Assembly: GCF_902506655.1 (NCBI RefSeq) | Contig: NZ_LR734808.1 | Location: 3,594,501-3,658,500, forward strand | Direction of reading: 5' to 3' | Length of the DNA: 64,000 nucleotides | Source: Marinoscillum sp. 108 | GTDB taxonomy: Bacteria > Bacteroidota > Bacteroidia > Cytophagales > Cyclobacteriaceae | Shown: positions 3-54,371 of the stretch, one piece after another | Layout: every line of letters begins with the position of its first letter | Position numbering within the stretch: the stretch's first letter is position 1 | The notes under the pieces: model-generated | Told to the model about the DNA's origin: nothing | The model's database searches: none | What the model saw: only the letters and a program-made list of their open reading frames with translations | Position numbers and translations under genes: made by a program

Positions 3-2612
3 GCACCTGGTGCCAGTCCTACCATTCACATTCGTGGAGTGGGTTCTATCAACAATACGGATCCCTTGTGGATTGTAGATGGCATCAAGATGTCGCCAGG
101 CAACCACTTCAACCTCGATGATGTGGAGTCCATTGAAATCCTGAAAGATGCTGCTTCAGCAGCCATCTATGGTGCAGAGGCTGCCCACGGAGTGATATTA
201 GTCACTACCAAGCGCGGGAAAGAGGGACAAACACAAATCAGCTACAAGAGCTCTTTTGCCAAGGTAAATCCTATTCGGCTGCCGGAGCTTCTGGGTAGCG
301 AGGACTTTGTGAATTACAAAAGACAAGCTCGGCTCAATGCAGGTCAGAATCCTGAACCCGCCTGGGACAACTGGGAGTATGATACTGACTGGATCGATGC
401 CTATTATGCGGGGAGCGGTTTTTCTCACTATCATGATTTTTCCATTTCTAAAGGGACTGAGCGCTCCAATTATTACCTATCCCTTGGCTATGATGATGAA
501 GAGGGTATCCTCATTGACAACAGCTTTCAGCGGTTTAGCCTCCGTTTCAATTCAGATTTTGAGCTGGCCAAGTGGTTGAAAATAGGAGAGAGCATACTTC
601 TTTCCCGGGTAGGAGAAAATCCGATCGATAATTTCAATGAAGATTATCAGGGATCTATCCCCTACCGCTCCATCCCCATCATGCCGATCTATGATGAGTC
701 CAACCCTTATGGAGGTTGGGGGCGGGCACCGGTATATTTTCAGGGGCCAAATCCTGTGGCGAGCCAGTATCAGCAGCACGAAAAACAAGTAAACAATCGC
801 CTGGATGGCAATATGTACATTCAGGCCACTCCGCTCAAGGGCCTGACCATTCGGGCAAGGGTAGGCTATAACTATACCTCTTTTTTGGGCCGTGCATTTA
901 AAGAGGCGTTCGATTACGGGGCTTTTGCCAACCCCATCAACTCTCTGACTTACTCAGATGGAAACTACGAGAACATCACGGGAAACTTTGTGACCACCTA
1001 CGAAAAATCATTCGGGAAGCATTCTTTTAAAATCATGGGGGGCTATGAAGCTTCGAAAGTGGAGAATGTGTCCTATAATGTCACTGCCACCGATTTACCG
1101 CTTGATATAGCCTGGAGTTTCAATCTTGCCACCGGCACTTTCAATACCACCAACAGACAAACCCTTTACGAAAGTCGTCTCCTTTCGCAGTTTGGCAGGA
1201 TCAATTATAATTTCGACGATCGCTACCTTCTGGAGGCGAATGTGAGACGCGATGCCTCTGCACCTATTTTCGGACCTAAAAATATTTGGGGGATTTTCCC
1301 CTCTTACTCCGCTGCCTGGAGAATCTCCGAAGAATCATTCATGCAAAATGTGGACGTCCTCTCTAACCTGAAGGTCCGGGCCAGCACCGGACGGCTCGGA
1401 TCTGATAACATTGGGAGTTTCATCTATGCGAAAACCTATACTTCACAGTTTTCCACCTACGCCTATGATGCAGCGGCGCAGAATAAGCAGTCGGGTTTCT
1501 ACATCAGCAAGTTTCCCAATGCCGATGTGAAATGGGAGGAAGTAAACATGCATAACATTGGGTTAGATGTAGGTCTCTTTGATGATAAAATTTTATTGTC
1601 TGCAGATTATTACATCAAAGACACGAAGGACCTGCTGTATGCCGTGCCTATCCCATCATCTTCGGGGATCTCCACCCATAATTTTGATGCCCGAAACCCC
1701 GAAATCAATGTTGGAACCATGCGAAACAGTGGATTGGATCTGGACCTGGCTTACCGGGATCATTTTGGGGTCTTTAACCTGAAAGTCAATGGAAACACCT
1801 CCTTCATGAAAAATGAAGTGTTGCGCCTGAACGGAGATGAGTACATCACTAGTGGCAATGGGGGCGGTCAGATTGGTGGTATGACCAGAACGCAGGCCGG
1901 AATGCCAATATCAAGCTTTTATGGGTATGTGGTTCAGCAAATGCTCAATTCTGAAGCAGACGTCTATGCAGTGAACAGCTGGGCGCCAGACGGCATCTAT
2001 CAGGAAGCGGGCACGGGCCCCGGGGATTTTATGTACAAAGACATCAGCGGACCCAATGGCGTACCGGATGGGCAGATCACCGCAGAATATGACCGTACAT
2101 TTATTGGCAATCCATGGCCAAAGATGATGTATGGACTGAACATCACCGGGGGTTATAAGCAGCTGATCGATGTGATGCTACAGTTTCAGGGAGTGCATGA
2201 TGTAGATATTTTCAATGCCAATAAGGCGTACACGCGCAATTTCTTTGGAGACAACAACACCACCACAGACATTTTTGAAGCCTGGACCGCAGAGGCCCAC
2301 ACCAGTCATCCCAGAAACATAGCGAATGACCCGAACGGGAATTTCGGTAGACCTTCTACTTATTTCATAGAGGACGGCTCTTATCTGAAGCTGAGAAATG
2401 CCCAGATAGGGATCAACATGCCCCCACAAATGTTGGAAAAAATGGGCATCGGCAAAATCAGAGTTTATGTGAATGCTAACAATCTCCTGACGATCAGAAA
2501 GTATTCCGGCATGGATCCGGAGATCGCTGGTTCCAATGTGAGCAGAGGAGTGGACTATGGCCTCTACCCTCATACGCGCACATTTGGAGGAGGGTTGGAA
2601 GTTCAGTTTTAA
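3..2612 (+). CDS. SusC/RagA-type TonB-dependent outer-membrane transporter, 5' end outside window
   Basis: The frame is open from the first bases, so the gene begins upstream and only about 870 C-terminal residues are visible. The visible part starts in the TonB plug domain, with the IHIRGVGS segment and PLWIVDG typical of SusC proteins, followed by a long beta-barrel rich in aromatic residues. The last residue is Phe (GGLEVQF), as expected for an outer-membrane barrel. SusC proteins import oligosaccharides through the outer membrane using TonB energy and pair with a SusD lid. A susD gene follows seven bases downstream, so the two are surely co-transcribed. The missing part would hold the signal peptide, carboxypeptidase-like domain and TonB box. 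The substrate is inferred from the neighbouring GH87 and GH71/99-like genes to be an alpha-glucan. Confidence 0.95.
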   Translation, partial: APGASPTIHIRGVGSINNTDPLWIVDGIKMSPGNHFNLDDVESIEILKDAASAAIYGAEAAHGVILVTTKRGKEGQTQISYKSSFAKVNPIRLPELLGSEDFVNYKRQARLNAGQNPEPAWDNWEYDTDWIDAYYAGSGFSHYHDFSISKGTERSNYYLSLGYDDEEGILIDNSFQRFSLRFNSDFELAKWLKIGESILLSRVGENPIDNFNEDYQGSIPYRSIPIMPIYDESNPYGGWGRAPVYFQGPNPVASQYQQHEKQVNNRLDGNMYIQATPLKGLTIRARVGYNYTSFLGRAFKEAFDYGAFANPINSLTYSDGNYENITGNFVTTYEKSFGKHSFKIMGGYEASKVENVSYNVTATDLPLDIAWSFNLATGTFNTTNRQTLYESRLLSQFGRINYNFDDRYLLEANVRRDASAPIFGPKNIWGIFPSYSAAWRISEESFMQNVDVLSNLKVRASTGRLGSDNIGSFIYAKTYTSQFSTYAYDAAAQNKQSGFYISKFPNADVKWEEVNMHNIGLDVGLFDDKILLSADYYIKDTKDLLYAVPIPSSSGISTHNFDARNPEINVGTMRNSGLDLDLAYRDHFGVFNLKVNGNTSFMKNEVLRLNGDEYITSGNGGGQIGGMTRTQAGMPISSFYGYVVQQMLNSEADVYAVNSWAPDGIYQEAGTGPGDFMYKDISGPNGVPDGQITAEYDRTFIGNPWPKMMYGLNITGGYKQLIDVMLQFQGVHDVDIFNANKAYTRNFFGDNNTTTDIFEAWTAEAHTSHPRNIANDPNGNFGRPSTYFIEDGSYLKLRNAQIGINMPPQMLEKMGIGKIRVYVNANNLLTIRKYSGMDPEIAGSNVSRGVDYGLYPHTRTFGGGLEVQF

Positions 2613-2633
2613 AGGAAAATGACCTTGAGAGCG

Positions 2634-4187
2634 ATGAAGACAATGAGAAAAATACTTTTATTAAGCATCATCACCACAGTTTTGGTGGCATGTGATGAAG
2701 ATAAATTTCTGGACATCACCAATCAGAATGAACTGGTAGCGGAAAATTTTTACACCAACATCACCAACTTCAATAACGCGCTGAATGGTGTTTATTCTGC
2801 AACAAAGAGCCTGGATTTATTCGGCCAGGCCTTTTATATCCAGACTTTGCTGGCGCTGCCACATACCTCGGACTATTGGAATGCTCAGTGTCGCAATGAA
2901 GTGACCTCCGGAGATGGCAATATGTACATCGCCTGGCGTGGGTGGTATCGGGTGGTATCACGAGCCAATGACCTATTGGAGAACGCACCGATCTATCTGG
3001 AGAATGAGTCGCCCAACGAAGCTCAAAAAGCAGAGTTGGCCCAGATCGTAGGGCAAGCGCACTTCTTTCGGGCCTTTGCTTATTTTCATCTGGTGAGGTT
3101 GTGGGGAGAGGCAGGATACGCTGAGGATAGTACCCGACTGGCGGTACCACTCCACCTGAAAGTGCCCACGACAAGAGATGAAATGATGAAGCCAAGGGCC
3201 ACTGTGGGCCAGGTTTACCGACAGATTGTGGCGGATTTCGAAATAGCCGAATCGCTGCTCCCAACCTCTTGGAATGATGATAATATCGCTCGGGCTACCT
3301 CCTATGCAGCCAAGGGCTTCCTGGGCAAAGTGCATCTCTATATGCAGGATTATGCCACCGCGAAAACTTATTTCGAAGAGGTTATCGGTTCTTCTGCATT
3401 CGCTCTGGGATCATTTGAGGAGTATGATCAGATGTTTCAGGGTAAGTTGGAGTTTGGGCCTGAGACCATTTTCGAGCTCAACTATGGTATAGATATGCAG
3501 CAAAATATCTGGGAAAATGGACTAGGATCGGGCATAGCGCTTACACTGGCTCCTCCCGGCAGAGGTTGGAGCAACTGTACGCCACATGGGGTAAATATAT
3601 TCCGGTTTGGAGATGACCCAAGGTTGAAAATATGCACCTATGCTCCCGAGGATTCTGCTGCTAACGTGGATGGTATCATGGAGCCCGTGGGCAAAAGTGA
3701 GTTTAATTATACCGGACATAGCTTTCGCAAGTATGTGCCGGAGGACTATTCAGTGTACTCTACCAACCGCAACAGCGGCATCAACTTCATCATCATGAGG
3801 CTCTCGGATGTCTACCTCATGTATGCTGAGGTGCTCAATCATACGGGCAATGATGTACTGGCGTCTGAGTATATGAATAAAGTGCGCCGACGGGCTTACA
3901 GTTTAGATCCCGAAACTCCCGAACCCACTGTGGATTATACTGGCCTGGGGGGTGTGCAGCTACAGGATTCTATCCGTGAGGAGCGATTCAGAGAACTCTT
4001 CGCAGAGGGTCATCGCTGGTATGATATCACCAGGTGGAAGATTGTAGAAGAGGAGGTAACCAAATACAATGATTTCAGGGTGACTCAGGGTGAGATCATC
4101 TATCAGGATCGCGATTATTACTACCCCATTCCCCTTCAGGAAGTGGACAATAATACCAACATGACGCCTAGTACAGGCTATGAATAA
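2634..4187 (+). CDS. SusD/RagB-family glycan-binding surface lipoprotein
   Basis: This is a 517-residue SusD-like protein that captures oligosaccharides at the cell surface and caps the SusC channel. The N-terminus is a lipoprotein signal with lipobox LVAC, followed by the acidic run DEDKF that fits the Bacteroidota surface-export signal. The body is helical and TPR-like, typical of RagB/SusD, and the end (YYYPIPLQEVDNN) is the usual SusD C-terminal signature. I chose the ATG at 2634 (MKTMRKILL) because it gives a normal short signal peptide; an ATG at 2619 and another at 2643 are also in frame. It follows susC directly and precedes a GH71/99-like lipoprotein. The assignment is firm; the ligand is inferred from context. 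Confidence 0.95.
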   Translation: MKTMRKILLLSIITTVLVACDEDKFLDITNQNELVAENFYTNITNFNNALNGVYSATKSLDLFGQAFYIQTLLALPHTSDYWNAQCRNEVTSGDGNMYIAWRGWYRVVSRANDLLENAPIYLENESPNEAQKAELAQIVGQAHFFRAFAYFHLVRLWGEAGYAEDSTRLAVPLHLKVPTTRDEMMKPRATVGQVYRQIVADFEIAESLLPTSWNDDNIARATSYAAKGFLGKVHLYMQDYATAKTYFEEVIGSSAFALGSFEEYDQMFQGKLEFGPETIFELNYGIDMQQNIWENGLGSGIALTLAPPGRGWSNCTPHGVNIFRFGDDPRLKICTYAPEDSAANVDGIMEPVGKSEFNYTGHSFRKYVPEDYSVYSTNRNSGINFIIMRLSDVYLMYAEVLNHTGNDVLASEYMNKVRRRAYSLDPETPEPTVDYTGLGGVQLQDSIREERFRELFAEGHRWYDITRWKIVEEEVTKYNDFRVTQGEIIYQDRDYYYPIPLQEVDNNTNMTPSTGYE

Positions 4188-4226
4188 TACGATTAAGTCG
4201 GAGCGGAAGTAGGGAATCAATACAAA

Positions 4227-5462
4227 ATGAACGGAATGAAAATGAGTACTTCAGTAATGTGGTTATGCGTGATGCTTTGCGCTGGGCTATTTGGTTGTGA
4301 TACGAGTGGAGGTGAAGAGGAGATCAAAGCAGATGTGTACGAACCCGTAAAGGTGTCGAAAACAAATGCCACCAAACTGTATATGCACTACATGCCTTGG
4401 TTTGAGGGAAAGGAATACTCTGGCTACTGGGGTAGTCACTGGCGGATGGCCAATAAGAACCCTGATAATATGGATAGTGAGGGTAAGCGTGAGATTGCTG
4501 CCCATTATTATCCCTTGATCGGTCCGTATGATTCGGGAGATCCTGATGTGATAGCGTATCATTTACTCTTGATGAAGTATGCCGGGATAGATGGAGTACT
4601 GATCGACTGGTACGGCAGCCATAAAGTGCTGGACTATGCTGCTAATCTGGACAATTCCAATGCGCTAATTGCTGCACTGGATACTATAGGGTTGAATTTT
4701 GGGATTGTTTATGAGGAATATACTGCTGAAAAAGTGGAAACCAGAAAAGGGATCACTGCCATAGAAGCTGCGCAGACAGATCTTTTGTACATGGAAGAAA
4801 ATTACTTTTCCAATGACAGATATATCACCATCGAAGAAGAACCATTGGTACTCACCTTCGGCCCAAGATTTTTTAGAAAGGCCGATGAATGGACAGAGAT
4901 ATTCTCCGTCATGGAGAAAAAACTAAAATTCCTCCCTTTGTGGAACCACGGGAACCTAGTAGGCGCTGCGAATACTGCCGGTGAATTTTCCTGGATAGAT
5001 TTCAATTATACACTCTCCGAGCTGGATAAGTTTTATGCAAAAACCAATCAGGGAGTCACTGTAGGGTCTATTTATCCGGGATTTCATGATTACTATAAAG
5101 AAGGGGGTTGGGGAGAAAGCTATGGCTATGTACGGCATCTAGATGGTATGACCATGCGTAGCACTTTTGATTTGGCCAAAGACTCCAACCTCCAATTTTT
5201 ACAACTCATTACCTGGAATGATTTCGGAGAGGGCACCATGATTGAACCCACTCAGGAATATGAATTCCTCTTTTTGGAGCTCATTCAGGAGTTTTCAGGA
5301 GTGCCCTACACCAAAGCTGAGCTTGAATTGGTGCACACCTACTATCTGAAAAAGAAAGCGCACAAAGGAGACCCTGATGCAGCGCTCAAACTTCGGGAAA
5401 TTTTTACCCTGCTCAATGAGCTGGAGCCCGCCAAAGCTGAACAAATTTTAAAAAATCTATAA
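4227..5462 (+). CDS. GH71/GH99-like glycoside hydrolase, surface lipoprotein
   Basis: This 411-residue protein has a lipoprotein signal (lipobox LFGC, Cys24) followed by an acid-rich stretch, suggesting display on the cell surface. The domain starts with LYMHYMPWF, continues with HYYPLIGPYDS and GIDGVLIDWYG, and ends in ITWNDFGEGTMIEP, the signature of the GH71/99-like group. In classical GH99 enzymes the equivalent end motif is WNEWHEG with two catalytic Glu; here the matching residues would be Asp332 and Glu335. GH99 enzymes are endo-alpha-mannosidases and GH71 enzymes are alpha-1,3-glucanases, so an alpha-glycan substrate fits. The association with a GH87 gene in the same locus favours alpha-1,3-glucan. 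It is a paralogue of the catalytic domain at 12299-14995. The family call is good; the exact activity is unknown. Confidence 0.85.
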   Translation: MNGMKMSTSVMWLCVMLCAGLFGCDTSGGEEEIKADVYEPVKVSKTNATKLYMHYMPWFEGKEYSGYWGSHWRMANKNPDNMDSEGKREIAAHYYPLIGPYDSGDPDVIAYHLLLMKYAGIDGVLIDWYGSHKVLDYAANLDNSNALIAALDTIGLNFGIVYEEYTAEKVETRKGITAIEAAQTDLLYMEENYFSNDRYITIEEEPLVLTFGPRFFRKADEWTEIFSVMEKKLKFLPLWNHGNLVGAANTAGEFSWIDFNYTLSELDKFYAKTNQGVTVGSIYPGFHDYYKEGGWGESYGYVRHLDGMTMRSTFDLAKDSNLQFLQLITWNDFGEGTMIEPTQEYEFLFLELIQEFSGVPYTKAELELVHTYYLKKKAHKGDPDAALKLREIFTLLNELEPAKAEQILKNL

Positions 5463-5492
5463 ACCAAAATGTATCACTTAATCCTAAATATT

Positions 5493-7091
5493 ATGAGAAC
5501 GATTTATTTCAAGAGATTGATGTTACTGGCCATGGTGCTGTTTTCATCCTTGCTGATCTCCTGTGGTGAGGATGACGGCCCAAAGGAACCTGAGGTGCTT
5601 TTACCTAATCTGGATGGTCTTTACGTCTACGGAACGAGCACAGTGGCCGCTGAGCCGGGTGGTGCTGCATCCAAAATCAATCTGGCCATTCTAGATCCCG
5701 GACAGGGCGCACAGGTAGAAAGTATGGACGGGGTGTTTGGTAAATTCATACACATTGGAGCGAACAGCACCATCAGCTTTGCCTATGTATCAGGTGGTGA
5801 AGGTGTAGTGTATGGTGCCGATGGAGGTGGCTCGCTGGATAGCGCCAATACCGTGGGAGGGGTTATCAACGATAAAGTAATCCATGGCACCTTGGTGCAG
5901 GATGCTGACCCCATCAACGTAACTAATGCAGGATTATACTATGTCTTTGTGAATATCAACACGGAGAGTTTCACCCTGATGGAAGTGAAAGCCAACATGA
6001 TTGGTGATGCGACCGAACTTCAGTGGTCTGCAGGCACAGCCCTGGCACTGAAGTCTTCGGACAATGACAAAACCGTCTTTGAGGGCACAGGGTTGGCACT
6101 GACCGGAGCCACAGGCTATCGCTACCGCTTTAATGATGGCTGGCATGTCTATTCTGATGAAACCATCGTGACGCTTTCCAGTCTTGGGGTGCCAAGCTAT
6201 GGGGACGCCTGGGATTCAGGCATCAATGATCTGGGGTTTTATTTAGACAATATTCCGCATAAAGAGACCGGAATCTTTACAGTCACACTGACCTACACAG
6301 CAAGTACGGGAGAGTGGGAAGAGGTGAAAACCAAAACCGGAGACCTGGAAAACGATTACTCAAGCCTTGAGATCGGATGGTTTGGAAATGCCTACCTCAT
6401 CGATGGAGCAGAGCCTTCAGAGCAGTGGGGGACAGTTCACCTGGTGAAAACACCTACCAAGGACCTAAAACTTTACAACTGGACCTGGACCATCGAATTG
6501 ATAGAAGACAGATCGTTTGTACTCAGAGATCCTGATGGTACTGTGTGGATTACCCACGGCGGAGCAGCTAAAGTAGGTGGAGCCTTCGATGATGGTGATA
6601 TCATCAAGGAAGAGGGGCAAGACAATTATTTTGTAGTTACTCCGGGGATTTATGAGGTCACATTTACCATCAACTCTGAAGACGATGGCAGGACGTTGAC
6701 AATGGAGCGCACCACTCAGTTTCCTGATTACTCGGATAAAGAATACGGAATATTTGGCAATGCCTACTACGTGGAGGGCACTACCGAAGGTGCCTGGGAG
6801 GCCATTCATCACATCAAAACTCCAGAGAAAGATGGCAACAAATACAACTGGACCTGGACCCTGGAGTTGATCGAAGGCCGGTCTTTTGTCTTCAGAGAAA
6901 ATGCTGAAAACGGCGAATGGGTGACTTATGGTGGTGCAGCCAAGATCGGGGAGGCTTTCGAAAGCGAGCTGATCATCAAAGAAGACGGACAGGACAACTA
7001 TTATGTGGCCACAGGAGGAAACTATGACATCACCTTCACCATCAATGCCGAAGATGAGGGGCGAATATTGAATATTGTTCCGGCCCAGTAA
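5493..7091 (+). CDS. SusE/SusF-like surface glycan-binding lipoprotein
   Basis: This 532-residue lipoprotein (signal starting at 5493, lipobox LISC, Cys24, then the acidic run GEDD) occupies the SusE/SusF position of the locus. It should hold glycan at the cell surface. The C-terminal half holds two tandem copies of one domain, about residues 291-410 and 412-532. Both start with a GNAY segment, contain NWTWT, ELIE and RSFV, continue with GGAAK and EDGQDNYYV or a close variant, and end with TFTIN. The N-terminal part (residues 30-290) is divergent and I do not recognise subdomains there. An upstream in-frame ATG at 5469 would spoil the signal peptide, so 5493 is preferred. No catalytic motif is visible. 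A strong inverted repeat lies about 95 bases downstream. Confidence 0.85.
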   Translation: MRTIYFKRLMLLAMVLFSSLLISCGEDDGPKEPEVLLPNLDGLYVYGTSTVAAEPGGAASKINLAILDPGQGAQVESMDGVFGKFIHIGANSTISFAYVSGGEGVVYGADGGGSLDSANTVGGVINDKVIHGTLVQDADPINVTNAGLYYVFVNINTESFTLMEVKANMIGDATELQWSAGTALALKSSDNDKTVFEGTGLALTGATGYRYRFNDGWHVYSDETIVTLSSLGVPSYGDAWDSGINDLGFYLDNIPHKETGIFTVTLTYTASTGEWEEVKTKTGDLENDYSSLEIGWFGNAYLIDGAEPSEQWGTVHLVKTPTKDLKLYNWTWTIELIEDRSFVLRDPDGTVWITHGGAAKVGGAFDDGDIIKEEGQDNYFVVTPGIYEVTFTINSEDDGRTLTMERTTQFPDYSDKEYGIFGNAYYVEGTTEGAWEAIHHIKTPEKDGNKYNWTWTLELIEGRSFVFRENAENGEWVTYGGAAKIGEAFESELIIKEDGQDNYYVATGGNYDITFTINAEDEGRILNIVPAQ

Positions 7092-7464
7092 ATAAAATTA
7101 GGACCAGCCAATGGCTGAGATGAAGTTTATGTAAGTAGTAGTATGAAGAAGTAGTATCAATGTAAGGAGACTTCATTATCCTCTTACACCCTGCACCAAC
7201 TTGGTGCAGGGTGTTTACTAAACTATTACCAACTACCCGGCTCACTGATGTGAGAACGGGGATTCGTTGCATGGAGAAGTAGGTTTTGTAAAACCATTAT
7301 TTGTCATAATTCTCTGGCATCTTCCCGAACCATCTATGTTATTAACCAGCAAACCAATACGATATGATTTAGACCTTCCATTTGATTGAAAAAATATTCT
7401 CAGAGTTGTGACTGATAGAGGGGGAGATAAGGATTTACTCTGACTAAACCTTAAAGAACAACCT
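7092..7464. other. 373-base intergenic region between the SusE/F-like and GH87 genes
   Basis: No convincing coding frame is present on either strand. The main feature is a perfect inverted repeat at 7186-7214. The remaining 250 bases before the GH87 start are moderately AT-rich and probably hold a promoter for the GH87 gene, but I find no good match to the paired TTG/TAnnTTTG boxes. Confidence 0.6.
7186..7214 (+). terminator. Perfect 14-bp inverted repeat, probable terminator or processing hairpin
   Basis: The arms 7186-7199 and 7201-7214 are exact reverse complements (ACACCCTGCACCAA and its complement) around a single central base, so the practical loop is about five bases. Only a short T-rich stretch follows. 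It lies after the SusE/F-like gene and could end the susCD transcript or stabilise its 3' end. Confidence 0.65.
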
Positions 7465-10400
7465 ATGAAAACCAATGGAAAATTAAGCTGGATTCTTTCG
7501 AATTCAGTTTTTAGAAATGGACTCACATTTCTGCTCATCCTCTCTTTGGCATTCCAGCTAAATGCACAAAGTGACGGGCTTCCTCGTGGAGCCTATCAAA
7601 TGCCCTATGTACGATATGAATCCGAAGATGCCAACCGTGGCGGAGGAGCCATCTTGTATGAAAATCCCTTTTTCGATGAACTGCTGACTGCAGCCGAAGC
7701 TTCAGATCAGAAATACGTAGGCCTGCCCAACAATGGAGCTTATGTGGAATGGAACATTAACAATACAGCGAATGGAATTACCCTGCGGTTCACCATGCCT
7801 GATGCGGCAGACGGAGAAGGAGAATCCGGTTCCCTGGATCTTTATGTGAACAATGCATTTGTCAAAACCATTAATCTCACCTCCTATTGGGCCTGGCAGT
7901 ACTTCCCGGGTTCGGAGCCGGAGAACCATCCCGGAGACCGGCCGAGAATGAGATTTGATGAGGTGCATTTCCTCCTCAATACGCCTGTTGGCCCGGGTGA
8001 TGTACTCAAAATTCAAAAAGGTGCCGGAGATTCCTTTGAGTACGGGGTAGACTTTATAGAAATTGAAAATGTAGGTGCCCCACTTTCCAAACCTTCCGGA
8101 TATTTCTCGGTGACGGATTATGGAGCGGTGCCTGATGATGGCAATGACGATTTTGCTGCTTTCAATGCAGCCCTCGCTGCGGCCGGTAGTGCCGGTACGG
8201 GTGTTTACATTCCTGCGGGTAGATTTGAACTTTCTGACAAATGGAGTGTAGAGGAAAATAACATAGGAATCCTGGGTGCCGGCATGTGGTACACTGAGCT
8301 GTTTTTTTCCACTGAAGCCGTTTTCAGCGGTGGGATCCTGGCCAGAGCCTCAGACATTGAGATTGGTCATTTTTATATGAATACCATCAATAATCAACGC
8401 TTTCTGAATGGCCAGTATGTGATTTACAAGGGTTTTATGGGTACCTACGGAAACAACTCCAGTATCCACGATGTATGGGTGACGCACTTTGAGTGTGGGG
8501 CCTGGATTGCGGGTTATGACCCGCCGTACCCCATTGACATCACCTATAACCTGGAGTTTACCAGAAACAGAATCAGGAACAACTACGCCGATGGGATCAA
8601 CCTTTGTCAGGGAACCTCCGGTACAGATGTTTCACATTGTAACTTCCGAAGTAATGGAGATGATGCCATGGCTGTATGGCCCAATAGCGATTTCGGAGCG
8701 CCAGAAGCGGTCAACAATATTTTCAGATACAATACTGTAGAGCATACCTATCGGGCAGCGGGATCAGCAATCTTCGGAGGAAACGGGCACCAGGTGCACC
8801 ATTGTATCATCAGAGATGGTCATGCGGGCAGTGGAATTCGTCTGACCACAGATTTTCCGGGGTATCATTTCGAAAATACCACACAAATCAGGTATTTCGA
8901 AAATACCATTGAGGCTTGCGGTACCAGTAAAGACCTCTGGGGGTTTCATCGGGGAGCCATCGAGATCAATGCAACCGGTGGAGGTATTCAGAATATCTTT
9001 TTTGAAAACATTGACATAATCAATGCTCAGCGTCACGGTGTTCAGATAGGTGGTAATGGCACTGATCTGCAGTTTGACAACATCAGTATTAACGGTACCG
9101 GGATCGATCCTTATACCTATTCCTATTATACAGTGGCTTTGGAAGGAGCTGCCGTAATGGCCTTTGGGGGTAATGGTACAGCTGTTTTCAATAACCTCTC
9201 ATTGGAGAATATTGAGTTGGATCCTCCTACTTACAAAGCCAATGAGAACTACAATCTGATCATTCAGAACCTGAACGTACCACTGACCGGAATTTCACTT
9301 TCGGAAAGTCAGATCGATATGGCAGTAGGCGAGGCGGAACCACTTTATGTGAACTACAGCCCGGCCAATGCCACCAACAAAACGGTAACCTGGACGACCT
9401 CCAATGCGGCCATTGCTACCTATGACGAAATAGAAGGCAAAGTGGTAGGGCAAGGAACCGGAACAGCCACGATCACTGTGACCTCTCAGGAAGGTAACTA
9501 TACCGCGCAGTGTACAGTGACAGTGAATGCCGCAGTGAATATCACCGCCAGTGATGATCAGGCGGATGAAAATGGTGGCACCGGGAGCTTTACCATTGCC
9601 ATCAGTGAGATCAATCAAAACATCACTGTTAACTATTCGGTCGGTGGATCCGTATCAGCAGGGGATTATTCCGCAAATCCGGCATTGAATGGCTCTGTTA
9701 CCCTCACACCGGGTAATCCTTCTCAGGTGATTACTATCACCCCTACTGATGACAATGAATTTGAAGGAGATGAGACTCTGACCGTGACACTTCAGTCAGG
9801 CAGTGGCTACCAGCTGGGCGGAGGTACCAGCGCCTCCATTACCATTGGTGACAATGAAAACCCTCCTTGTACGGCGCCAGTCATTGGTTATACCTCGGGT
9901 GGCCCGACTATCAACCAGATCATAGAGTCTGTGTGGAGTACCGCGCCTGCAAAAGGGATTAGTAATTCCACTATTGGTGGTATCCCTGGTGACTATTCGG
10001 GTCAGTGGCGAGCACTCTATGACGCCAGCAACCTGTATGTGCTGGTGGAAGTGGGTGATGCCACCCGCACCAATGATAGCGGCGGAAACTGGTGGGAAGA
10101 TGACGTGGTGGAAATCTTCATAGATGGAAACAACAGTAAAGGCACGTCTTACGATGGCATCAATGATTTTCAGTTGGGCTTCCGATGGAATGATGCCACG
10201 GTGCATGCCGGTGGCAATTCTGTACAGAACACCACTGGCATCAATTTTAGCATGTATGCATCCGGCAGTGGTTATGTTCTGGAAGCGGCCATCCCATGGT
10301 CTACTATAGGTGTAACACCTTCTATCGGAAGTGTCATAGGTTTTGATGTGGCAGTAGATGATGATGACAATGGCGGCACCCGTGATGCTCAGGTAGTATC

Positions 10401-12180
10401 GATTGCTACTACGGATGCAGGATGGAGCAACCCCAGTATTTTTGGATCCATTTACCTGACTGATTGCAATGGTGCTCCCGGTAATCAGTCACCTTTGGCC
10501 AATGCCGGTACAGATCAGACATTGGCGTCTGGAATCTCCACCGCCAACCTGAATGGCTCAGGCTCAGACCCGGATAATGATCCGATCACCTATAGCTGGA
10601 GTCAGGTCAGTGGCCCTTCGGCTACCATCAATAATGGCAGCAGTGCCAGTGCTTCTGTATCGGGTCTTGCCGATGGAAACAGCTACATTTTCCGATTGAC
10701 GGTGAGCGACGGTTCCTTGAGTGCTACAGATGATGTGGTGATCAACGTAAACACCGCATCCCCAACCCAAACCCCTTATGGCGGCACCCCATGGGCCATA
10801 CCGGGCACCATTGAAGCAGAGAACTTTGACAATGGAGGCGAAGGGATTGCCTACCACGATGCAGATGCCAACAACAATGGCGGACAGGGGCGTACAGGTG
10901 ATGGAGTAGACACCGAAAACTGTAGCGCGGGTGGCCTGAATGTTGGCTGGACGAGTGCTGGTGAATGGCTCGAATACACTGTGAATGTAGCCTCTGCCGG
11001 AACGTATGACTTCAACTTCCGGGTGGCTTCCATCAACTCTGGAGGTACATTCCATGTAGAGTTTGACGGGGTAAACAAAACAGGAACTGTAACCAGTGTG
11101 AACACTGGGGCCTGGCAAACATGGACCAGCGTGAATGTAATGGGAGTTTCCCTAAGTGCTGGTCAACAGATTATGCGGATCGCTTTGGATAACCCAAATC
11201 ACAACATCGACAAAGTGATTATCACCAGTGCTACGGGCAATGTGCCGGTGACAGGTGTGAGTGTATCACCATCTTCTGCGAGCATCACAGCAGGTAATAC
11301 CCAGCAACTGACAGCAACCGTCACACCTGCCAATGCTACGAACCAGAGTGTGAGTTGGAGCTCCGGAAACACTGGTGTGGCTACTGTCAATGGTTCTGGT
11401 CTGGTCACGGGGGTAGCTGCCGGAACAGCTACGATTACAGTGACTACTCAGGATGGTAATTACACTGCCACGAGCACCATTACCGTGACATCAGATGGAG
11501 GCGGAGGTAGTGGCTACCGGATCAAAAATGCATGGCAAAACACCTACCTGGCTGATGGTGGCGATCGGGTGACCTATGGAGCCACTCCATCTGGCAGCAG
11601 CTATGAGTGGGAGTTGGAAGATGTGGGTGGAGGCCATGTGGAAATCAAAAATGTAGCCACGGGTGAGTACATGCACATTGAAAACCTGACCGGCTATGTA
11701 CAGTGTACCACCCGAACATTTGGTTGGTATAGCAGCCGCTGGGTGATAGAGGATGCCGGAAATGGAGAGAGCAGAATCAGAAATGCCTGGCAGGGTGACA
11801 ACTACATTCACGTAGAAAATCTGCAGGGTCATGCTCAGCATGGAACGATTTATACTGCATGGGCCAGTGCCAAGTGGGTATTGGAGCCAGTGAGTGGAGC
11901 CAGGGTGTTATCTGAGTCTTTCATTGAGCAAAATGAGATAAAAACAGTACTGGATATCTACCCCAATCCGGTAACGGACAAACTCACCATTGGTTTTAGT
12001 GGGAGTATCGACACAGAGACCGTATGGGCCCTCTATGATTTGTCCGGTAGTTTGATCATGAAGCGAAAGATGACCGCTCCGAGAATGGAAATTCTTCGTG
12101 GTGAGCTCAAATCAGGAGTTTATATGCTCCAGATCAACTCCCAGGGAGAAAGACACACCAGAAAAGTGGTGATTAAATAG
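7465..12180 (+). CDS. Multimodular GH87 alpha-1,3-glucanase (mycodextranase family), type IX secreted
   Basis: This 1571-residue secreted protein starts with a signal peptide (about 1-35, ending LNAQ). Then come a CBM35-like region (38-213) and a right-handed beta-helix (216-607) opening with VTDYGAVPDDG. In the helix, Asp376 (NYADGINL) and the pair Asp399-Asp400 (RSNGDDAMAVWP) reproduce the three-Asp pattern of GH87, including the 23-residue spacing I recall for that family. GH87 enzymes hydrolyse alpha-1,3 bonds in mutan or nigeran. After the helix come BIG2 (609-690), Calx-beta (695-798), a CBM9/DOMON-like domain (802-1002), a PKD-like domain (1005-1096), CBM6 (1103-1257), a second BIG2 (1261-1342), a ricin-like beta-trefoil with three repeats (1351-1479) and a type IX sorting domain (1499-1571, YPNPVTDKL). 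Domain calls are by eye. The catalytic call is strong; substrate fine specificity is inferred. Confidence 0.88.
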   Translation: MKTNGKLSWILSNSVFRNGLTFLLILSLAFQLNAQSDGLPRGAYQMPYVRYESEDANRGGGAILYENPFFDELLTAAEASDQKYVGLPNNGAYVEWNINNTANGITLRFTMPDAADGEGESGSLDLYVNNAFVKTINLTSYWAWQYFPGSEPENHPGDRPRMRFDEVHFLLNTPVGPGDVLKIQKGAGDSFEYGVDFIEIENVGAPLSKPSGYFSVTDYGAVPDDGNDDFAAFNAALAAAGSAGTGVYIPAGRFELSDKWSVEENNIGILGAGMWYTELFFSTEAVFSGGILARASDIEIGHFYMNTINNQRFLNGQYVIYKGFMGTYGNNSSIHDVWVTHFECGAWIAGYDPPYPIDITYNLEFTRNRIRNNYADGINLCQGTSGTDVSHCNFRSNGDDAMAVWPNSDFGAPEAVNNIFRYNTVEHTYRAAGSAIFGGNGHQVHHCIIRDGHAGSGIRLTTDFPGYHFENTTQIRYFENTIEACGTSKDLWGFHRGAIEINATGGGIQNIFFENIDIINAQRHGVQIGGNGTDLQFDNISINGTGIDPYTYSYYTVALEGAAVMAFGGNGTAVFNNLSLENIELDPPTYKANENYNLIIQNLNVPLTGISLSESQIDMAVGEAEPLYVNYSPANATNKTVTWTTSNAAIATYDEIEGKVVGQGTGTATITVTSQEGNYTAQCTVTVNAAVNITASDDQADENGGTGSFTIAISEINQNITVNYSVGGSVSAGDYSANPALNGSVTLTPGNPSQVITITPTDDNEFEGDETLTVTLQSGSGYQLGGGTSASITIGDNENPPCTAPVIGYTSGGPTINQIIESVWSTAPAKGISNSTIGGIPGDYSGQWRALYDASNLYVLVEVGDATRTNDSGGNWWEDDVVEIFIDGNNSKGTSYDGINDFQLGFRWNDATVHAGGNSVQNTTGINFSMYASGSGYVLEAAIPWSTIGVTPSIGSVIGFDVAVDDDDNGGTRDAQVVSIATTDAGWSNPSIFGSIYLTDCNGAPGNQSPLANAGTDQTLASGISTANLNGSGSDPDNDPITYSWSQVSGPSATINNGSSASASVSGLADGNSYIFRLTVSDGSLSATDDVVINVNTASPTQTPYGGTPWAIPGTIEAENFDNGGEGIAYHDADANNNGGQGRTGDGVDTENCSAGGLNVGWTSAGEWLEYTVNVASAGTYDFNFRVASINSGGTFHVEFDGVNKTGTVTSVNTGAWQTWTSVNVMGVSLSAGQQIMRIALDNPNHNIDKVIITSATGNVPVTGVSVSPSSASITAGNTQQLTATVTPANATNQSVSWSSGNTGVATVNGSGLVTGVAAGTATITVTTQDGNYTATSTITVTSDGGGGSGYRIKNAWQNTYLADGGDRVTYGATPSGSSYEWELEDVGGGHVEIKNVATGEYMHIENLTGYVQCTTRTFGWYSSRWVIEDAGNGESRIRNAWQGDNYIHVENLQGHAQHGTIYTAWASAKWVLEPVSGARVLSESFIEQNEIKTVLDIYPNPVTDKLTIGFSGSIDTETVWALYDLSGSLIMKRKMTAPRMEILRGELKSGVYMLQINSQGERHTRKVVIK
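11857..12092 (+). repeat. Near-identical 236-bp C-terminal module, copy 1 (in GH87 gene)
   Basis: This segment aligns without gaps to 14672-14907 with about ten differences by eye, roughly 96% identity. It encodes the end of the beta-trefoil, the linker EQNEIKTVLD and the first two thirds of the type IX sorting domain. The genes diverge on both sides of it. This implies recent duplication or gene conversion. Confidence 0.9.
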
Positions 12181-12205
12181 CCCTGCCATGCGCAGATAAC
12201 CTATG

Positions 12206-12241
12206 AATGAGGAGAGGACCCGAATGGGGCTTCTCCTCATT
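12206..12241 (+). terminator. 16-bp hairpin between the GH87 and secreted GH71/99-like genes
   Basis: Arms 12206-12221 and 12226-12241 pair with a single interior mismatch (outer ten base pairs AATGAGGAGA perfect) around a GAAT loop, followed by a short T-rich run. It lies 26 bases after the GH87 stop and 58 bases before the next start. It could be a terminator, or a hairpin that tunes expression of the downstream gene. Confidence 0.6.
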
Positions 12242-12298
12242 ATTTTCTCATCAAAATGGATGAGACACACCAGCAACCAACCAAAAAAAAAATCTAAT

Positions 12299-14995
12299 AT
12301 GCAAACCAAAATTTTTACCTCCTTGTGGCTGCTCCTGTTTTTGAGTGTAGTCAGCTTTTCACAGCCGGTACAAGTCACAAAATCTTATGGAAAACCTGTT
12401 TTCATGCATTACATGCCATGGTTTGATACACCGCAGTATGGGGGTGGATGGGGCTATCACTGGACCATGGCCAATAAAAACCCGGATGTGATAGTGGATG
12501 GCTCCACGGGTAAAAGACAAATTGCTTCGCACTACTACCCGATGATCGGGCCATATGATTGTCAGGATCCTGATGTGATCGAATACCACTTACTTCTTAT
12601 GAAATATGCCGGGATCGACGGGGTTCTGGTAGATTGGTACGGTTCTCAGGGCACAAATGGGGATGTGGGTAGCCTCCTGACCAACTCTAATGCCCTTATT
12701 GATCAAACGGATGAAGCCGGAATGAAATTTGCCCTCATTTTGGAGGATCGCTTTTCGGGTTCCATCTCTCAGGCTCAGGGCAATATCGCCTATGCCAGAG
12801 ATAACTATTTCAATAGAAACAACTACTACCGACATGGTGCCGGCAATGACCCGTTAGTGGGGGTATTCGGACCCATAACATTTCAAAATCCAGGGGACTG
12901 GACGACCATCCTTTCTGCGGCTAACGAAGACGTAGAGTTTCTTCCCCTTTGGTATGAAGCCGGGGATGGAGGATCCAACTCAGATGGAGAATACGTCTGG
13001 ATCTACGAGGAAAATGATGACTATTACAGTCGAATGCAGACCTATTATCAAAACCGTGCCGGTTCTATGAAAACGGTGATGGGTGTGGCTTATCCTGGAT
13101 TCCACGATTTCTATGCTGAAGGTGGGGCCGGATCCAGCTATTTCCACATTCCTCACAATGGCACCGGGACTTTAAGCCAAACGTTGGGCTTGGTCAATCA
13201 ATATGGATCGAACATTGATATTCTTCAGTTGGCTACCTGGAACGATTTCGGAGAAGGGACGATTTTCGAACCCACTTTCGAGTTTGGGTTTAGTTTTCTG
13301 ACCACCCTCCAACAATTTTTGGGCGTATCATATGGCGAATACGAACTTCAGCAGATTTACAGATTATATAACCTGCGAAAGCAACATGCAGGAAACGGCA
13401 GTATTCAATCTCAACTGAATCAGGCGTATGACCATTTTGTGGCGCTACGGGTGAACGATGCAGTATCGGTATTGAATGCTGTGGACGGGGGTACCCCACC
13501 ACCACCTAGTTGTGATGTGGTGAATATTCCGGGAACCCTTCAGGCAGAGGGCTACTGCGGTATGTCAGGCATCCAGTTGGAAAATACGACTGATGCCGGT
13601 GGTGGTCAAAATGTGGGATGGATTGATGCTGGTGATTGGCTGACTTATCAGGTGAGCGTACCAACTTCTGGTAGTTATGTGGTGAATTATCGAGTGGCCA
13701 GTGGTAATGGTGGCGGTGGCATTCGACTGGAGCGGGCCGGTGGTGGTCAGACATTTGGCACCATAGGGGTTCCGTCTACAGGTGGATGGCAAAACTGGAC
13801 CACTATTTCTCACACGGTACAGCTCACTGCTGGCCAGCAGGAGATTGCCATTGTGGCGACCAGTGGTGGGTACAACATCAACTGGATTTCGCTGGCAGCG
13901 GACGGAGGCGGCGGAGGCCCTAACCCTGTTTGGGGTACTGTGCAGGCGGAAGCCTGGTCTGCCATGAATGGAGTGCTGACAGAAACCACCTCCGATACAG
14001 GAGGTGGAGAAAATGTAGGTTGGATCGATGCAGGAGATTGGATGGAGTATCTCGTGCAGGTACCCACCACAGGATCATATAACATTGAATATAGAGTGGC
14101 CAGTGCGCCTGGAGGAGGCAGTGTTTCGCTGGCTCAGAATGGCGCCAACCTGTCGACCACAAACATTCCCAACACTGGCAGCTGGCAAACCTGGACGACT
14201 GTGAGTACTACAGTGAGCCTTACCGCCGGGGTGCAGACCATTCGATTGACAGCAGCATCAGGTGGCTGGAACATCAACTGGTGGAGTGTCTCCAGTGTTG
14301 GAGGAGGAGGAGGAAATCCTACCGGCGCTGTTTATAAAATCAGGAATGTTTGGCAAAATACATTCCTCGCCGATGGAGGCGACAGGGTGACTTACAGCAC
14401 ATCGGCATCAGGGGCTGCATATGAGTGGGAGTTGGTAGATACAGGCGGCAACAAGGAGTTGAAAAATGTGGCAACCGGAGAATATATGCATGTGCAGAAC
14501 ATCACCGGATATGTACAATGCACAGCGATCACCCCAGGATGGGGCAGTGCGCAGTGGGTAATAGAGGATGCCGGAAATGGAGAGTCCAGAATCAAAAACG
14601 TATGGCAGAGCAATGACTATATCCATGTGGAGAATCTCCAGGGCCATGCCCAGTATGGAACCATTTACCCGGCATGGGCCAGTGCCAAGTGGGTGCTGGA
14701 GCCAGTGAGTGGAGCCAGGGTGTTGTCTGAGTTTTTCATTGAGCAAAATGAGATAAAAACAGTACTGGATATCTACCCCAATCCTGTAACGGACAAACTC
14801 ACCATTGATTTTAGTGGGAGTATTGATACAGAGACCGTATGGGCCCTCTATGATTTGTCCGGTAGTTTGATCATGAAGCGAAGGATGACTGCTCCGAGAA
14901 TGGAAATCGTTCGCGGCGACTTGAAGTCCGGGGTATATATGCTTAGGATCAGCACTGAAAATGGAGTGCTTTCCAGGAAAGTGATCATTCAATAA
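12299..14995 (+). CDS. Secreted GH71/99-like glycoside hydrolase with two CBM6 modules and type IX sorting domain
   Basis: This 898-residue protein starts at the ATG of MQTKIFTSLW, which gives a clean signal peptide ending in SFSQ; a longer upstream reading would run through the hairpin at 12206. The catalytic domain (about 32-398) is paralogous to 4227-5462, sharing HYMPWF, HYYPMIGPYD, GIDGVLVDWYG and TWNDFGEGT (Asp316, Glu319 at the presumed catalytic positions). Two CBM6-type modules follow (405-536 and 542-668), both with the QNVGWIDAGDW or ENVGWIDAGDW sugar-binding motif. Then come a ricin-like beta-trefoil (677-804) and a sorting domain (825-898, YPNPVTDKL). It should be secreted by the type IX system and act on polymer outside the cell, with the lipoprotein paralogue acting at the surface. 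The specificity is inferred from the GH87 neighbour. Confidence 0.87.
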   Translation: MQTKIFTSLWLLLFLSVVSFSQPVQVTKSYGKPVFMHYMPWFDTPQYGGGWGYHWTMANKNPDVIVDGSTGKRQIASHYYPMIGPYDCQDPDVIEYHLLLMKYAGIDGVLVDWYGSQGTNGDVGSLLTNSNALIDQTDEAGMKFALILEDRFSGSISQAQGNIAYARDNYFNRNNYYRHGAGNDPLVGVFGPITFQNPGDWTTILSAANEDVEFLPLWYEAGDGGSNSDGEYVWIYEENDDYYSRMQTYYQNRAGSMKTVMGVAYPGFHDFYAEGGAGSSYFHIPHNGTGTLSQTLGLVNQYGSNIDILQLATWNDFGEGTIFEPTFEFGFSFLTTLQQFLGVSYGEYELQQIYRLYNLRKQHAGNGSIQSQLNQAYDHFVALRVNDAVSVLNAVDGGTPPPPSCDVVNIPGTLQAEGYCGMSGIQLENTTDAGGGQNVGWIDAGDWLTYQVSVPTSGSYVVNYRVASGNGGGGIRLERAGGGQTFGTIGVPSTGGWQNWTTISHTVQLTAGQQEIAIVATSGGYNINWISLAADGGGGGPNPVWGTVQAEAWSAMNGVLTETTSDTGGGENVGWIDAGDWMEYLVQVPTTGSYNIEYRVASAPGGGSVSLAQNGANLSTTNIPNTGSWQTWTTVSTTVSLTAGVQTIRLTAASGGWNINWWSVSSVGGGGGNPTGAVYKIRNVWQNTFLADGGDRVTYSTSASGAAYEWELVDTGGNKELKNVATGEYMHVQNITGYVQCTAITPGWGSAQWVIEDAGNGESRIKNVWQSNDYIHVENLQGHAQYGTIYPAWASAKWVLEPVSGARVLSEFFIEQNEIKTVLDIYPNPVTDKLTIDFSGSIDTETVWALYDLSGSLIMKRRMTAPRMEIVRGDLKSGVYMLRISTENGVLSRKVIIQ
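14672..14907 (+). repeat. Near-identical 236-bp C-terminal module, copy 2 (in GH71/99-like gene)
   Basis: Partner of the copy at 11857-12092, offset by 2,815 bases, in the same direction and reading phase. It covers the beta-trefoil end, linker and most of the sorting domain. The last 28 residues of the two proteins differ. Confidence 0.9.
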
Positions 14996-22124: not shown

Positions 22125-23237
22125 ATGAAAATTGCGATTATCATTAATACCAGCTGGAATATTTATAATTTTCGCAGGGGTCTTGTGAGGTGTTTTCTTG
22201 ATCGTGGAGATGAGGTGATTGCCATCGCTCCGGGGGATGCATACTCGAAAAAGCTTCAGGACCTTGGATGTCGATTGATTGACCTGCCCATGTCTGCCAG
22301 TGGTATGAACCCCTTCACTGATTTTGTCTTGCTCCTGAAATTGCGAGGCATTCTGAAGGAAGAAAGACCCGACGTGGTGCTGACCTACACCATCAAGCCC
22401 AACATCTATGGTTCGTTAGCAGCCGGGTGGCTTGGAATCCCCTGTATCTGTAATGTGAGTGGATTGGGGACTACTTTTTTATGGAAAGGATGGGTAAAGA
22501 AAATGGCCACAACACTCTATTCATTTGCGTTTCGGTTCAATAGTTGGGTGTTTTTTCAGAACACGGATGATCGTGAAGAATTTGGCAGGTTTGTGAGGAT
22601 TGATATGAGCAAAACGAGTCTTCTTCCTGGCTCAGGGGTAGATGTTGATCACTTTAAGCCGGGCTCACCTCCAGAGAACTCCATTCCTGTCTTTTTAATG
22701 ATTAGTAGGCTTTTGGTGGAGAAAGGAATATACGATTTCATTGAAGCCATCAGGATTTTAAGAAGGAAGGGGAGGAAGGCCGAGTTTCATTTGATTGGTG
22801 GATTGGATGAAGAGCATTCACGAGCGGTTTCCAGAAGTGAGTTGGAAGAGTGGATAGAAGAGGGATTGATCAGCTATCAGGAACATATTGAGGATGTGAG
22901 GGTGGCTATTGCGCAGGCTGATGTGGTGGTTTTACCTTCTTACAGGGAGGGTACACCGCGTACCTTGCTGGAGGCCGGCGCCATGGGGAAGCCATTGATA
23001 GCTACGGATGTACCAGGGTGCAATCATGTACTCATTGATGGATACAATGGATTCCTGTGCAAAGTCAAAAATCCCAATGACCTTGCTGCTAAGATGAGCT
23101 TGTTTCTTTCCCTTAATGATGAGGAGCAATTTCAAATGGCTCAAAACGCTCGCCAGAGCATTGTAGAGCGGTTTGATGAGCGACTGGTCATCAAGCTTTA
23201 TAGTGACAAGATGGATGAATTCGTTTCGGGCTTATAA
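22125..23237 (+). CDS. GT4-family glycosyltransferase (PglA/capsular type)
   Basis: This 370-residue protein is a two-domain GT-B glycosyltransferase. The N-terminal domain starts MKIAIIINTSWNIYNFRRG and includes DVVLTYTIKPNIYGSLAA, typical of enzymes that add HexNAc or hexose to undecaprenyl-diphosphate sugars. The C-terminal domain has FLMISRLLVEKGIYDFIEA and the EX7E donor-binding motif REGTPRTLLEAGA (near residues 275-285). It should act at the cytoplasmic face of the inner membrane. It opens a cluster with an export lipoprotein, a BY-kinase and a phosphatase, so it probably works in exopolysaccharide or capsule assembly. The sugar transferred is not known. Confidence 0.88.
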   Translation: MKIAIIINTSWNIYNFRRGLVRCFLDRGDEVIAIAPGDAYSKKLQDLGCRLIDLPMSASGMNPFTDFVLLLKLRGILKEERPDVVLTYTIKPNIYGSLAAGWLGIPCICNVSGLGTTFLWKGWVKKMATTLYSFAFRFNSWVFFQNTDDREEFGRFVRIDMSKTSLLPGSGVDVDHFKPGSPPENSIPVFLMISRLLVEKGIYDFIEAIRILRRKGRKAEFHLIGGLDEEHSRAVSRSELEEWIEEGLISYQEHIEDVRVAIAQADVVVLPSYREGTPRTLLEAGAMGKPLIATDVPGCNHVLIDGYNGFLCKVKNPNDLAAKMSLFLSLNDEEQFQMAQNARQSIVERFDERLVIKLYSDKMDEFVSGL

Positions 23238-23301
23238 TGAACAGTATCAAGGCTATTTTTAGGTTTTGGCTTATCTTCGCCATCAAACTCAGTTGTTCTA
23301 T

Positions 23302-54212: not shown

Positions 54213-54250
54213 ATGGCGGTGAGTTTAGTTTGGGAAGGATTGAAAATAAA

Positions 54251-54278
54251 AAAAGTCCCGAACTAATCCGGGACTTTT
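54251..54278 (-). terminator. Terminator, copy 1, downstream of the 664-residue DUF3857 gene
   Basis: Stem AAAAGTCCCG/CGGGACTTTT (54251-54260 with 54269-54278), loop AACTAATC, with a U tract on the minus strand. Nearly identical to the hairpin at 56401-56427. Confidence 0.85.
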
Positions 54279-54371
54279 CTTAATTATTTTGGAAACGACT
54301 GAAGGACAGGATATGTAACCCAACTCTAGGGGTTGAATTTAACTACTGTAAACAGTGTTCTGGTAATTTTC

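What the first reader, a model, noticed from the sequence alone, without database searches (positions are those of the whole stretch)
3..14995. Probable alpha-1,3-glucan utilization locus built on GH87 and GH71/99-like enzymes
A susC/susD pair is followed by a GH71/99-like lipoprotein, a SusE/F-like lipoprotein, a GH87 protein and a secreted GH71/99-like protein. GH87 enzymes cleave alpha-1,3-glucan and the three Asp are present with the spacing I recall for the family. Pairing GH87 with two GH71/99-like enzymes (GH71 is also alpha-1,3-active) suggests a dedicated system for mutan, nigeran or fungal-wall glucan. No common alpha-glucan enzymes (GH13, GH31, GH97) are visible in the part seen, though the locus runs off the left edge.
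Basis: partly seen in the sequence, partly recalled or inferred. Interest (0 to 1): 0.75.

Follow-up and report, generated by a model that had tools for sequence, protein, structure and literature searches.

The report
Bacterial locus for digesting alpha-1,3-glucan
A bacterium of the Bacteroidota carries a gene cluster that very probably lets it digest alpha-1,3-glucan, the tough sugar polymer of fungal walls and dental plaque, using a known type of glucan cutter together with a widespread but barely studied type of enzyme.

Summary
The locus is complete: eight co-directional genes, two of them left of the window: ECF sigma, FecR, SusC, SusD, GH71/99-like lipoprotein (G71a), SusE/F-like lipoprotein, T9SS-tailed GH87, and T9SS-tailed GH71/99-like protein (G71b). 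GH87 is firm: solved alpha-1,3-glucanase 5ZRU aligns end to end (E 2e-167), three catalytic Asp in register. No GH13, GH31 or GH97 lies in the locus; the genome has one GH31 and three GH97 elsewhere. The GH71/99-like enzymes have a GH99-like fold and loop, but two active-site residues are GH71-type (Asp in the dyad, Trp beside it), and the -2 position carries the Tyr that in GH99 favours glucose over mannose. In relatives they accompany alpha-glucan genes: GH97 lies beside them in 79 of 80 named loci examined, and GH87 genomes of one genus are enriched for them (20 of 25 against 26 of 224; not corrected for phylogeny). This favours alpha-1,3-glucan over mannan. Nothing is assayed; mutan, nigeran and fungal-wall glucan cannot be told apart. 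A Prevotella locus with GH87, GH97 and a GH71/99 enzyme was printed in July 2026, so this is a new variant of a just-described kind.

The parts
3..2612 (+). SusC (TonB-dependent importer), C-terminal 869 of 1152 aa; the gene starts 846 bp left of the window. Left of it lie FecR (window -1889 to -843) and an ECF sigma factor (-2697 to -2032), all + strand
2619..4187 (+). SusD-type surface glycan-binding lipoprotein
   Evidence: PF07980 E 7e-37, PF14322 E 2e-26; lipobox by eye
4227..5462 (+). G71a: GH71/99-like lipoprotein, single barrel; presumed catalytic Asp332 and Glu335 of the 411-aa frame (codons at 5220 and 5229) in the motif WNDFGEG
5469..7091 (+). SusE/F-like lipoprotein with one C-terminal repeat more than 6 of the 7 relatives aligned
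7465..12180 (+). GH87: catalytic unit at residues 41-601 (about 7585-9267), Asp376, Asp399, Asp400; then Big_2, Calx-beta-like, CBM9, PKD-like, CBM6, Big_2, ricin-like and T9SS sorting domains
12203..14995 (+). G71b: GH71/99-like catalytic domain, two CBM6 stretches, a ricin-like part (by its 80% DNA identity to that of GH87) and a T9SS sorting domain

Best explanation
This is a polysaccharide utilization locus for alpha-1,3-linked glucan (mutan, pseudonigeran or fungal-wall alpha-glucan). Proposed working: the T9SS-secreted, CBM-rich GH87 cuts the insoluble polymer inside the chain and the secreted G71b acts beside it, both held on the substrate by their binding modules. SusD and the SusE/F-like lipoprotein capture the released nigero-oligosaccharides at the surface. 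The lipoprotein G71a shortens them by an inverting reaction (Asp base, Glu acid, as proposed for GH71). SusC imports them. A periplasmic alpha-glucosidase coded elsewhere (a GH97 in a starch-type locus, or the GH31) finishes them to glucose. SusC with FecR and the ECF sigma factor switches the genes on. Shown here: gene content, families, conserved residues, comparative linkage. Inferred: substrate, localisation, division of labour, regulation, inverting mechanism.
For: GH87 is firm. Closest solved structure is an alpha-1,3-glucanase. The GH71/99-like family has D-[FY]-G-E in 100 of 101 relatives where GH99 has E-W-H-E, Trp in 42 of 42 opposite BxGH99 Tyr252 and Tyr in 40 of 42 at the -2 position, which PMC12394665 and PMC11025385 (passages) tie to GH71 and to glucose preference. 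GH97 lies in 79 of 80 named loci examined; the one partner tested is of alpha-glucosidase type. GH87 genomes are enriched for the GH71/99-like gene: 20 of 25 against 26 of 224 in one genus, 6 of 6 against 16 of 389 in the phylum sample. The same gene order from sigma factor to GH87, with the same two left neighbours, is in Marinoscillum pacificum. The Prevotella GH71/99-like enzyme acted weakly on S. mutans glucans and not on yeast cells (PMC13421300, results section). The SusE/F-like protein ranks SusF first in the fold search.
Against: No assay. Overall fold is nearer GH99 than GH71 (TM 0.57-0.63 against 0.47). Only 2 of 80 named loci hold GH87, and in 5 of 5 other sampled GH87 loci no GH71/99-like gene is near. 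5 of 25 GH87 genomes of the genus lack the GH71/99-like gene. Co-occurrence is not corrected for phylogeny or genome size; 18 of the 25 GH87 genomes are of 5 Mb or more. 8 of the 20 further relatives' stretches lack GH97. The GH97 link speaks for alpha-glucan in general, not for alpha-1,3. No finishing alpha-glucosidase is in the locus. Reported activity of the Prevotella GH71/99-like enzyme was low on all substrates tested and its authors call its preferred substrate undetermined.
Confidence: 0.72

Rival explanations
1. The locus serves a mixed alpha-glucan: nigeran (alternating alpha-1,3/1,4) or a branched alpha-1,3/1,6 glucan such as streptococcal mutan or alternan. GH87 cuts the alpha-1,3 parts (or acts as a mycodextranase) and the GH71/99-like enzymes cut the others.
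For: GH87 also holds mycodextranases (PMC13421300, discussion part 1). The usual partner GH97 is a broad alpha-glucosidase family (PMC10316084 passages). The Prevotella enzymes acted on S. mutans glucans of mixed linkage.
Against: The closest structure by far is an alpha-1,3-glucanase (562 bits against 120 or less for the other GH87 structures). No dextranase (GH66), GH31 or GH13 is in the locus. No mycodextranase sequence was available for comparison.
Confidence: 0.2
2. The GH71/99-like enzymes are mannanases of the GH99 kind, and the locus works on a fungal wall with both mannan and alpha-1,3-glucan.
For: GH99 structures are the best fold and sequence matches.
Against: Asp for Glu in the dyad, Trp for Tyr252, and Tyr at the -2 position; GH97 neighbours; no activity of the Prevotella relative on yeast cells. 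The tools searched no mannan-specific families genome-wide.
Confidence: 0.07
3. The SusC/SusD/GH71-99-like core serves another alpha-glucan (starch-like or dextran-like) and GH87 is a recent, functionally loose addition.
For: Only 2 of 80 named loci hold GH87; GH87 stands apart in the other five sampled loci; this genome's nearest GH97 is in a starch-type locus.
Against: GH87 and the GH71/99-like gene still co-occur by genome when unlinked. An independent Prevotella locus also joins them (PMC13421300). A GH13 stands in a different locus of this genome.
Confidence: 0.13

Closest known systems
Putative mutan locus of Prevotella melaninogenica (pPmPUL; PMC13421300, July 2026)
   Same: SusC/SusD locus that joins GH87 with a GH71/99-like enzyme of single-barrel type and D-Y-G-E motif
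   Different: There GH97 is in the locus, the regulator is SusR-like, GH87 is a lipoprotein with few domains and there is one GH71/99-like enzyme. Here GH97 is absent, regulation is by ECF sigma/FecR, GH87 is a large T9SS protein with CBMs, a SusE/F-like protein is present, and there are two GH71/99-like enzymes, one T9SS-tailed
GH87 alpha-1,3-glucanases Agl-KA (Bacillus circulans) and Agl-EK14 (Flavobacterium sp. EK-14, PMC10696023)
   Same: Catalytic unit, three Asp; Agl-EK14 also has Ig-like, ricin-like and C-terminal sorting domains and acts on fungal-wall alpha-1,3-glucan
   Different: This GH87 scores much nearer to the 5ZRU enzyme than to the stand-alone GH87 of the Flavobacterium genomes read (34.9-35.4% identity, 277-302 bits) and is part of a PUL. 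That those Flavobacterium genes are orthologues of Agl-EK14 is my inference from length and start
GH71 (AnGH71C, PMC12394665) and GH99 (BxGH99, BtGH99, human MANEA)
   Same: GH99: fold, long loop after the first strand. GH71: Asp in the dyad and Trp beside it
   Different: Lacks GH99's E-W-H-E; lacks the tightly packed C-terminal beta-sandwich described for GH71 (G71a is a single barrel) and has the loop that AnGH71C lacks
Branched dextran utilization locus of Flavobacterium johnsoniae (PMC10316084)
   Same: SusC/D/E-type alpha-glucan locus of the same phylum with a GH97, the family that accompanies the GH71/99-like gene in relatives
   Different: Uses GH66, GH31 and GH65; GH87, GH71 and GH99 do not occur in its text

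Membership tests
GH87 | CatAgl_D1 and D2 catalytic unit along its length | tested here: met
   Pfam E 3e-44 and 6e-19; 5ZRU residues 12-578 aligned
GH87 | three catalytic Asp in place | tested here: met
   aligned without gaps between them, invariant in 3 of 3; their role from PMC10696023 passages
GH87 | hydrolysis of alpha-1,3-glucan | not testable with these tools
   needs an assay
GH99 | GH99-type barrel with about 50 residues between first strand and first helix | tested here: met
   model of G71a: strand 30-35, first long helix 86-99; GH99 are fold matches 1-36
GH99 | E-W-[HG]-E catalytic motif | tested here: not met
   D-[FY]-G-E in 100 of 101 relatives and in both window enzymes; aligned with E-W-H-E
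GH71 | D-Y-G-E type motif and Trp at the AnGH71C Trp185 place | tested here: met
   the Trp equivalence goes through BxGH99 Tyr252 and was counted by hand
GH71 | sequence and fold nearest to GH71 members | tested here: not met
   GH99 nearer: profile E 2.5e-18 against 0.15 for AnGH71C; fold TM 0.57-0.63 against 0.47. PF03659 just over cut-off for G71a, below it for G71b
GH71 | C-terminal beta-sandwich packed on the barrel | tested here: not met
   G71a ends with helices and has no such domain; G71b was not modelled
SusCD-type polysaccharide utilization locus | adjacent SusC and SusD genes with carbohydrate-active enzymes | tested here: met
SusCD-type polysaccharide utilization locus | induction by the target glycan | not testable with these tools
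   needs culture and expression data
SusE/SusF family | PF16411 over its cut-off | tested here: inconclusive
   26 bits against 27.5; SusF first and SusE third and fourth in the fold search at TM 0.15-0.16 (query) from a model of pLDDT 77

The most novel reading that the evidence does not exclude
The GH71/99-like enzymes are a separate glycoside hydrolase family: a GH99-type barrel and loop with a GH71-type inverting active site and a glucose-selecting -2 subsite. They are the core of a widespread alpha-1,3-glucan system in Bacteroidota and neighbouring groups, whose usual form is SusC/SusD/GH71-99-like/GH97 with GH87 unlinked or absent. The window locus is the fully armed form, with GH87 and a second, secreted family member brought into the locus.
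Probability: 0.45. Interest if true: 0.65.

Novelty: new variant of a known kind. Interest (0 to 1): 0.5.

Why it matters
Alpha-1,3-glucan helps shield pathogenic fungi and holds dental plaque together. [quoted passage not shown] This locus and its relatives give a testable set, and the neighbours and active-site residues give a reason to test the GH71/99-like enzymes on nigero-oligosaccharides and alpha-1,3-glucan and not on mannan. They may also be useful for studying how one barrel changes between retaining and inverting catalysis.

Tried and rejected
Mannan reading of the GH71/99-like enzymes: judged unlikely on residues and neighbours. Plain membership of GH99 or of GH71: each fails a tested feature. 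Recent tandem duplication of G71a and G71b: rejected; they are 45% identical and fall in different supported clades. What GH87 and G71b do share closely is the C-terminal ricin/T9SS part (80% DNA identity over 623 columns). A signalling (STN) domain in SusC: the sequence looks like it by eye, but Pfam does not report one. Genome-wide content rests on single-family searches (GH87, GH99, GH31, GH97); GH13, GH15, GH65 and mannan families were not searched genome-wide, though one GH13 was met in a starch-type locus. The SusE/F model is moderate, so its fold match is weak. A GH87 tree with Gram-positive members and mycodextranases was not made. Pfam scans of 19 further window proteins showed no other part of this system.

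Full report
OBSERVATION. The window is bases 3594501-3658500 of contig 1 of a 5.21 Mb genome. I fetched the sequence to the left. SusC starts 846 bp outside the window and codes for 1152 aa; a FecR-type anti-sigma gene and an ECF sigma-factor gene precede it, and then two genes run on the other strand. The locus is complete and has eight co-directional genes. Pfam finds no GH13, GH31 or GH97 in any of the eight.

GH87. The protein at 7465-12180 matches both parts of the GH87 catalytic unit and aligns over residues 41-601 with alpha-1,3-glucanase 5ZRU at E 2e-167. That 5ZRU is Agl-KA of Bacillus circulans is recalled, in line with a reference title seen in PMC12394665. The Asp of the ADG motif and the two of the GDD motif (residues 376, 399, 400) align with no gap between them and are invariant in the three sequences. 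Their role is taken from PMC10696023 (passages). Ig-like, CBM9, PKD-like, CBM6, ricin-like and T9SS sorting domains follow. GH87 is rare in the phylum: 6 of 395 sampled genomes, the window's own included, pass the cut-off, and one more has a weak match.

THE GH71/99-LIKE ENZYMES. G71a and G71b are 45% identical. The model of G71a, from 42 sequences, has mean pLDDT 94. Fold matches 1 to 36 are GH99 enzymes (TM 0.57-0.63); GH71 AnGH71C is match 38 (TM 0.47). Fifty residues lie between the first strand and the first long helix; PMC12394665 (passages) says that GH99 has about 50 residues there and AnGH71C lacks them. The active site departs from GH99. E-W-H-E of GH99 aligns with D-F-G-E, and D-[FY]-G-E is in 100 of 101 relatives. 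PMC12394665 says that Asp in this place is almost exclusive to GH71 and proposes an inverting mechanism. It names a second difference, Trp185 in AnGH71C against Tyr252 in BxGH99; opposite Tyr252 the family has Trp in 42 of 42. A third position, human Tyr189, sets glucose (Tyr) or mannose (Trp) preference at the -2 subsite of GH99 (PMC11025385, passages). The family has Tyr there in 40 of 42, aligned with the human Tyr, where the two Bacteroides enzymes have Trp. I counted these equivalences by hand; the numbering fits E333/E336 of BxGH99 (recalled; titles name E333Q and E336Q variants) and the 195-199 motif of the human enzyme. PMC11025385 also says that a fungal GH71 has no residue analogous to Tyr189, and that some GH99 proteins carry D-Y-G-E, so the motif alone does not decide the family.

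NEIGHBOURS. A scan of named genomes found 174 relatives; the best 80 loci were kept and annotated with profiles from this genome. GH97 lies in 79 of the 80. The exception is Marinoscillum pacificum, which has GH87 instead. GH87 lies in 2 of the 80 (Marinoscillum and Parachryseolinea silvisoli, which has both). Still, the pairing is seen in named members of eight families, Prevotellaceae, Dysgonomonadaceae, Paludibacteraceae, Flavobacteriaceae, Cesiribacteraceae, Cyclobacteriaceae, Fulvivirgaceae and Balneolaceae. Of the 20 further stretches 8 lack GH97: five are deep-branching relatives, one is a 3.8 kb contig, one is the nearest relative of G71b, one is a fragment that was not placed. The one partner GH97 tested matches alpha-glucosidases far better than alpha-galactosidases (E 2e-204 against 9e-67).

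CO-OCCURRENCE. In the 395-genome sample 6 of 6 GH87 genomes have a strong GH71/99-like match, against 16 of 389 others (p 1.5e-8). I take the genomes to be the same set, since the handles agree. Phylogeny and genome size are not corrected for; 18 of the 25 GH87 genomes are of 5 Mb or more. In five other GH87 loci read, 0 of 5 have a GH71/99-like gene in about 20 kb; one has a SusC/SusD-like pair directly beside GH87. So the link is mostly by genome and only seldom by neighbourhood.

WHERE IS THE ALPHA-GLUCOSIDASE? The genome has one GH31 and three GH97 genes, none in this locus. One GH97 is 59-61% identical to the GH97 in the loci of four Cytophagales relatives. It sits beside SusC, SusD, a SusE-type protein, a GH13 and a DUF6377 protein: a starch-type locus. 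The DUF6377 family also stands by the GH71/99-like loci of relatives. I infer that one GH97 may serve both loci. A characterised GH97, FjGH97A, does cleave nigerose (PMC10316084, passages).

OTHER PARTS. The SusE/F-like protein lists SusF first and SusE third in the fold search, with low TM-scores from a moderate model. The window and Marinoscillum proteins carry one repeat more than the six others aligned. G71b belongs to a clade with the second copy of Nafulsella and a 1310-aa protein of another genome. Marinoscillum has a single GH71/99-like gene and a 2425-aa protein with two copies of both GH87 catalytic domains.

PRINT. The searches (open-licence PubMed Central only) gave one paper that joins GH87 with a GH71/99-like enzyme in one locus: PMC13421300, July 2026 (outline, results, first of three parts of the discussion read). 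It says that no PUL with GH87, GH97 and GH99 had been described and, to its authors' knowledge, none with GH87 characterised. It reports low activity of the GH71/99-like enzyme on S. mutans glucans and none on yeast cells, and calls its preferred substrate undetermined. The pairing is thus in print. In those listings I saw no account of the family-wide GH97 linkage, the GH87 co-occurrence, or the form of the locus seen here; I did not read every listed paper.

VERDICT. By inference this is an alpha-1,3-glucan utilization locus, unassayed, and a new variant of a kind first described about a week before the library's date.

Noticed in passing
L062:13029-20306 (Marinoscillum pacificum): One 2425-aa protein with two copies of both GH87 catalytic-unit domains plus CBMs and a T9SS tail: a possible double-headed alpha-1,3-glucanase.
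   Followed up: partly
window 11521-12136 and 14339-14951: The C-terminal ricin/T9SS parts of GH87 and G71b are 80% identical in DNA over 623 columns, as after a recent copying or conversion of a shared tail between unrelated enzymes.
   Followed up: partly
L063:9905-16208 (Nafulsella turpanensis): A locus with two GH71/99-like genes and a GH97 and no GH87: the window's two-enzyme form with the usual partner.
   Followed up: partly
L069:1663-5297 and similar places in Flavobacterium, Dysgonomonas and Prevotella loci: DUF6377, DUF5004 and DUF4961-like proteins stand before SusC in the GH71/99-like/GH97 loci; DUF6377 may be their regulator.
   Followed up: partly
window 22125-26432: A glycosyltransferase-like protein (by eye), a polysaccharide export protein and a Wzz/tyrosine-kinase-like protein: start of an exopolysaccharide cluster.
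   Followed up: no
window 50350-56366, minus strand: Three consecutive proteins of 630-664 aa with DUF3857, DUF3858 or transglutaminase-like domains.
   Followed up: no
window 46500-48848, minus strand: A 782-aa protein with weak matches to six-hairpin glycosidases (alpha-rhamnosidase-, GH116- and debranching-type models), specificity unclear.
   Followed up: no
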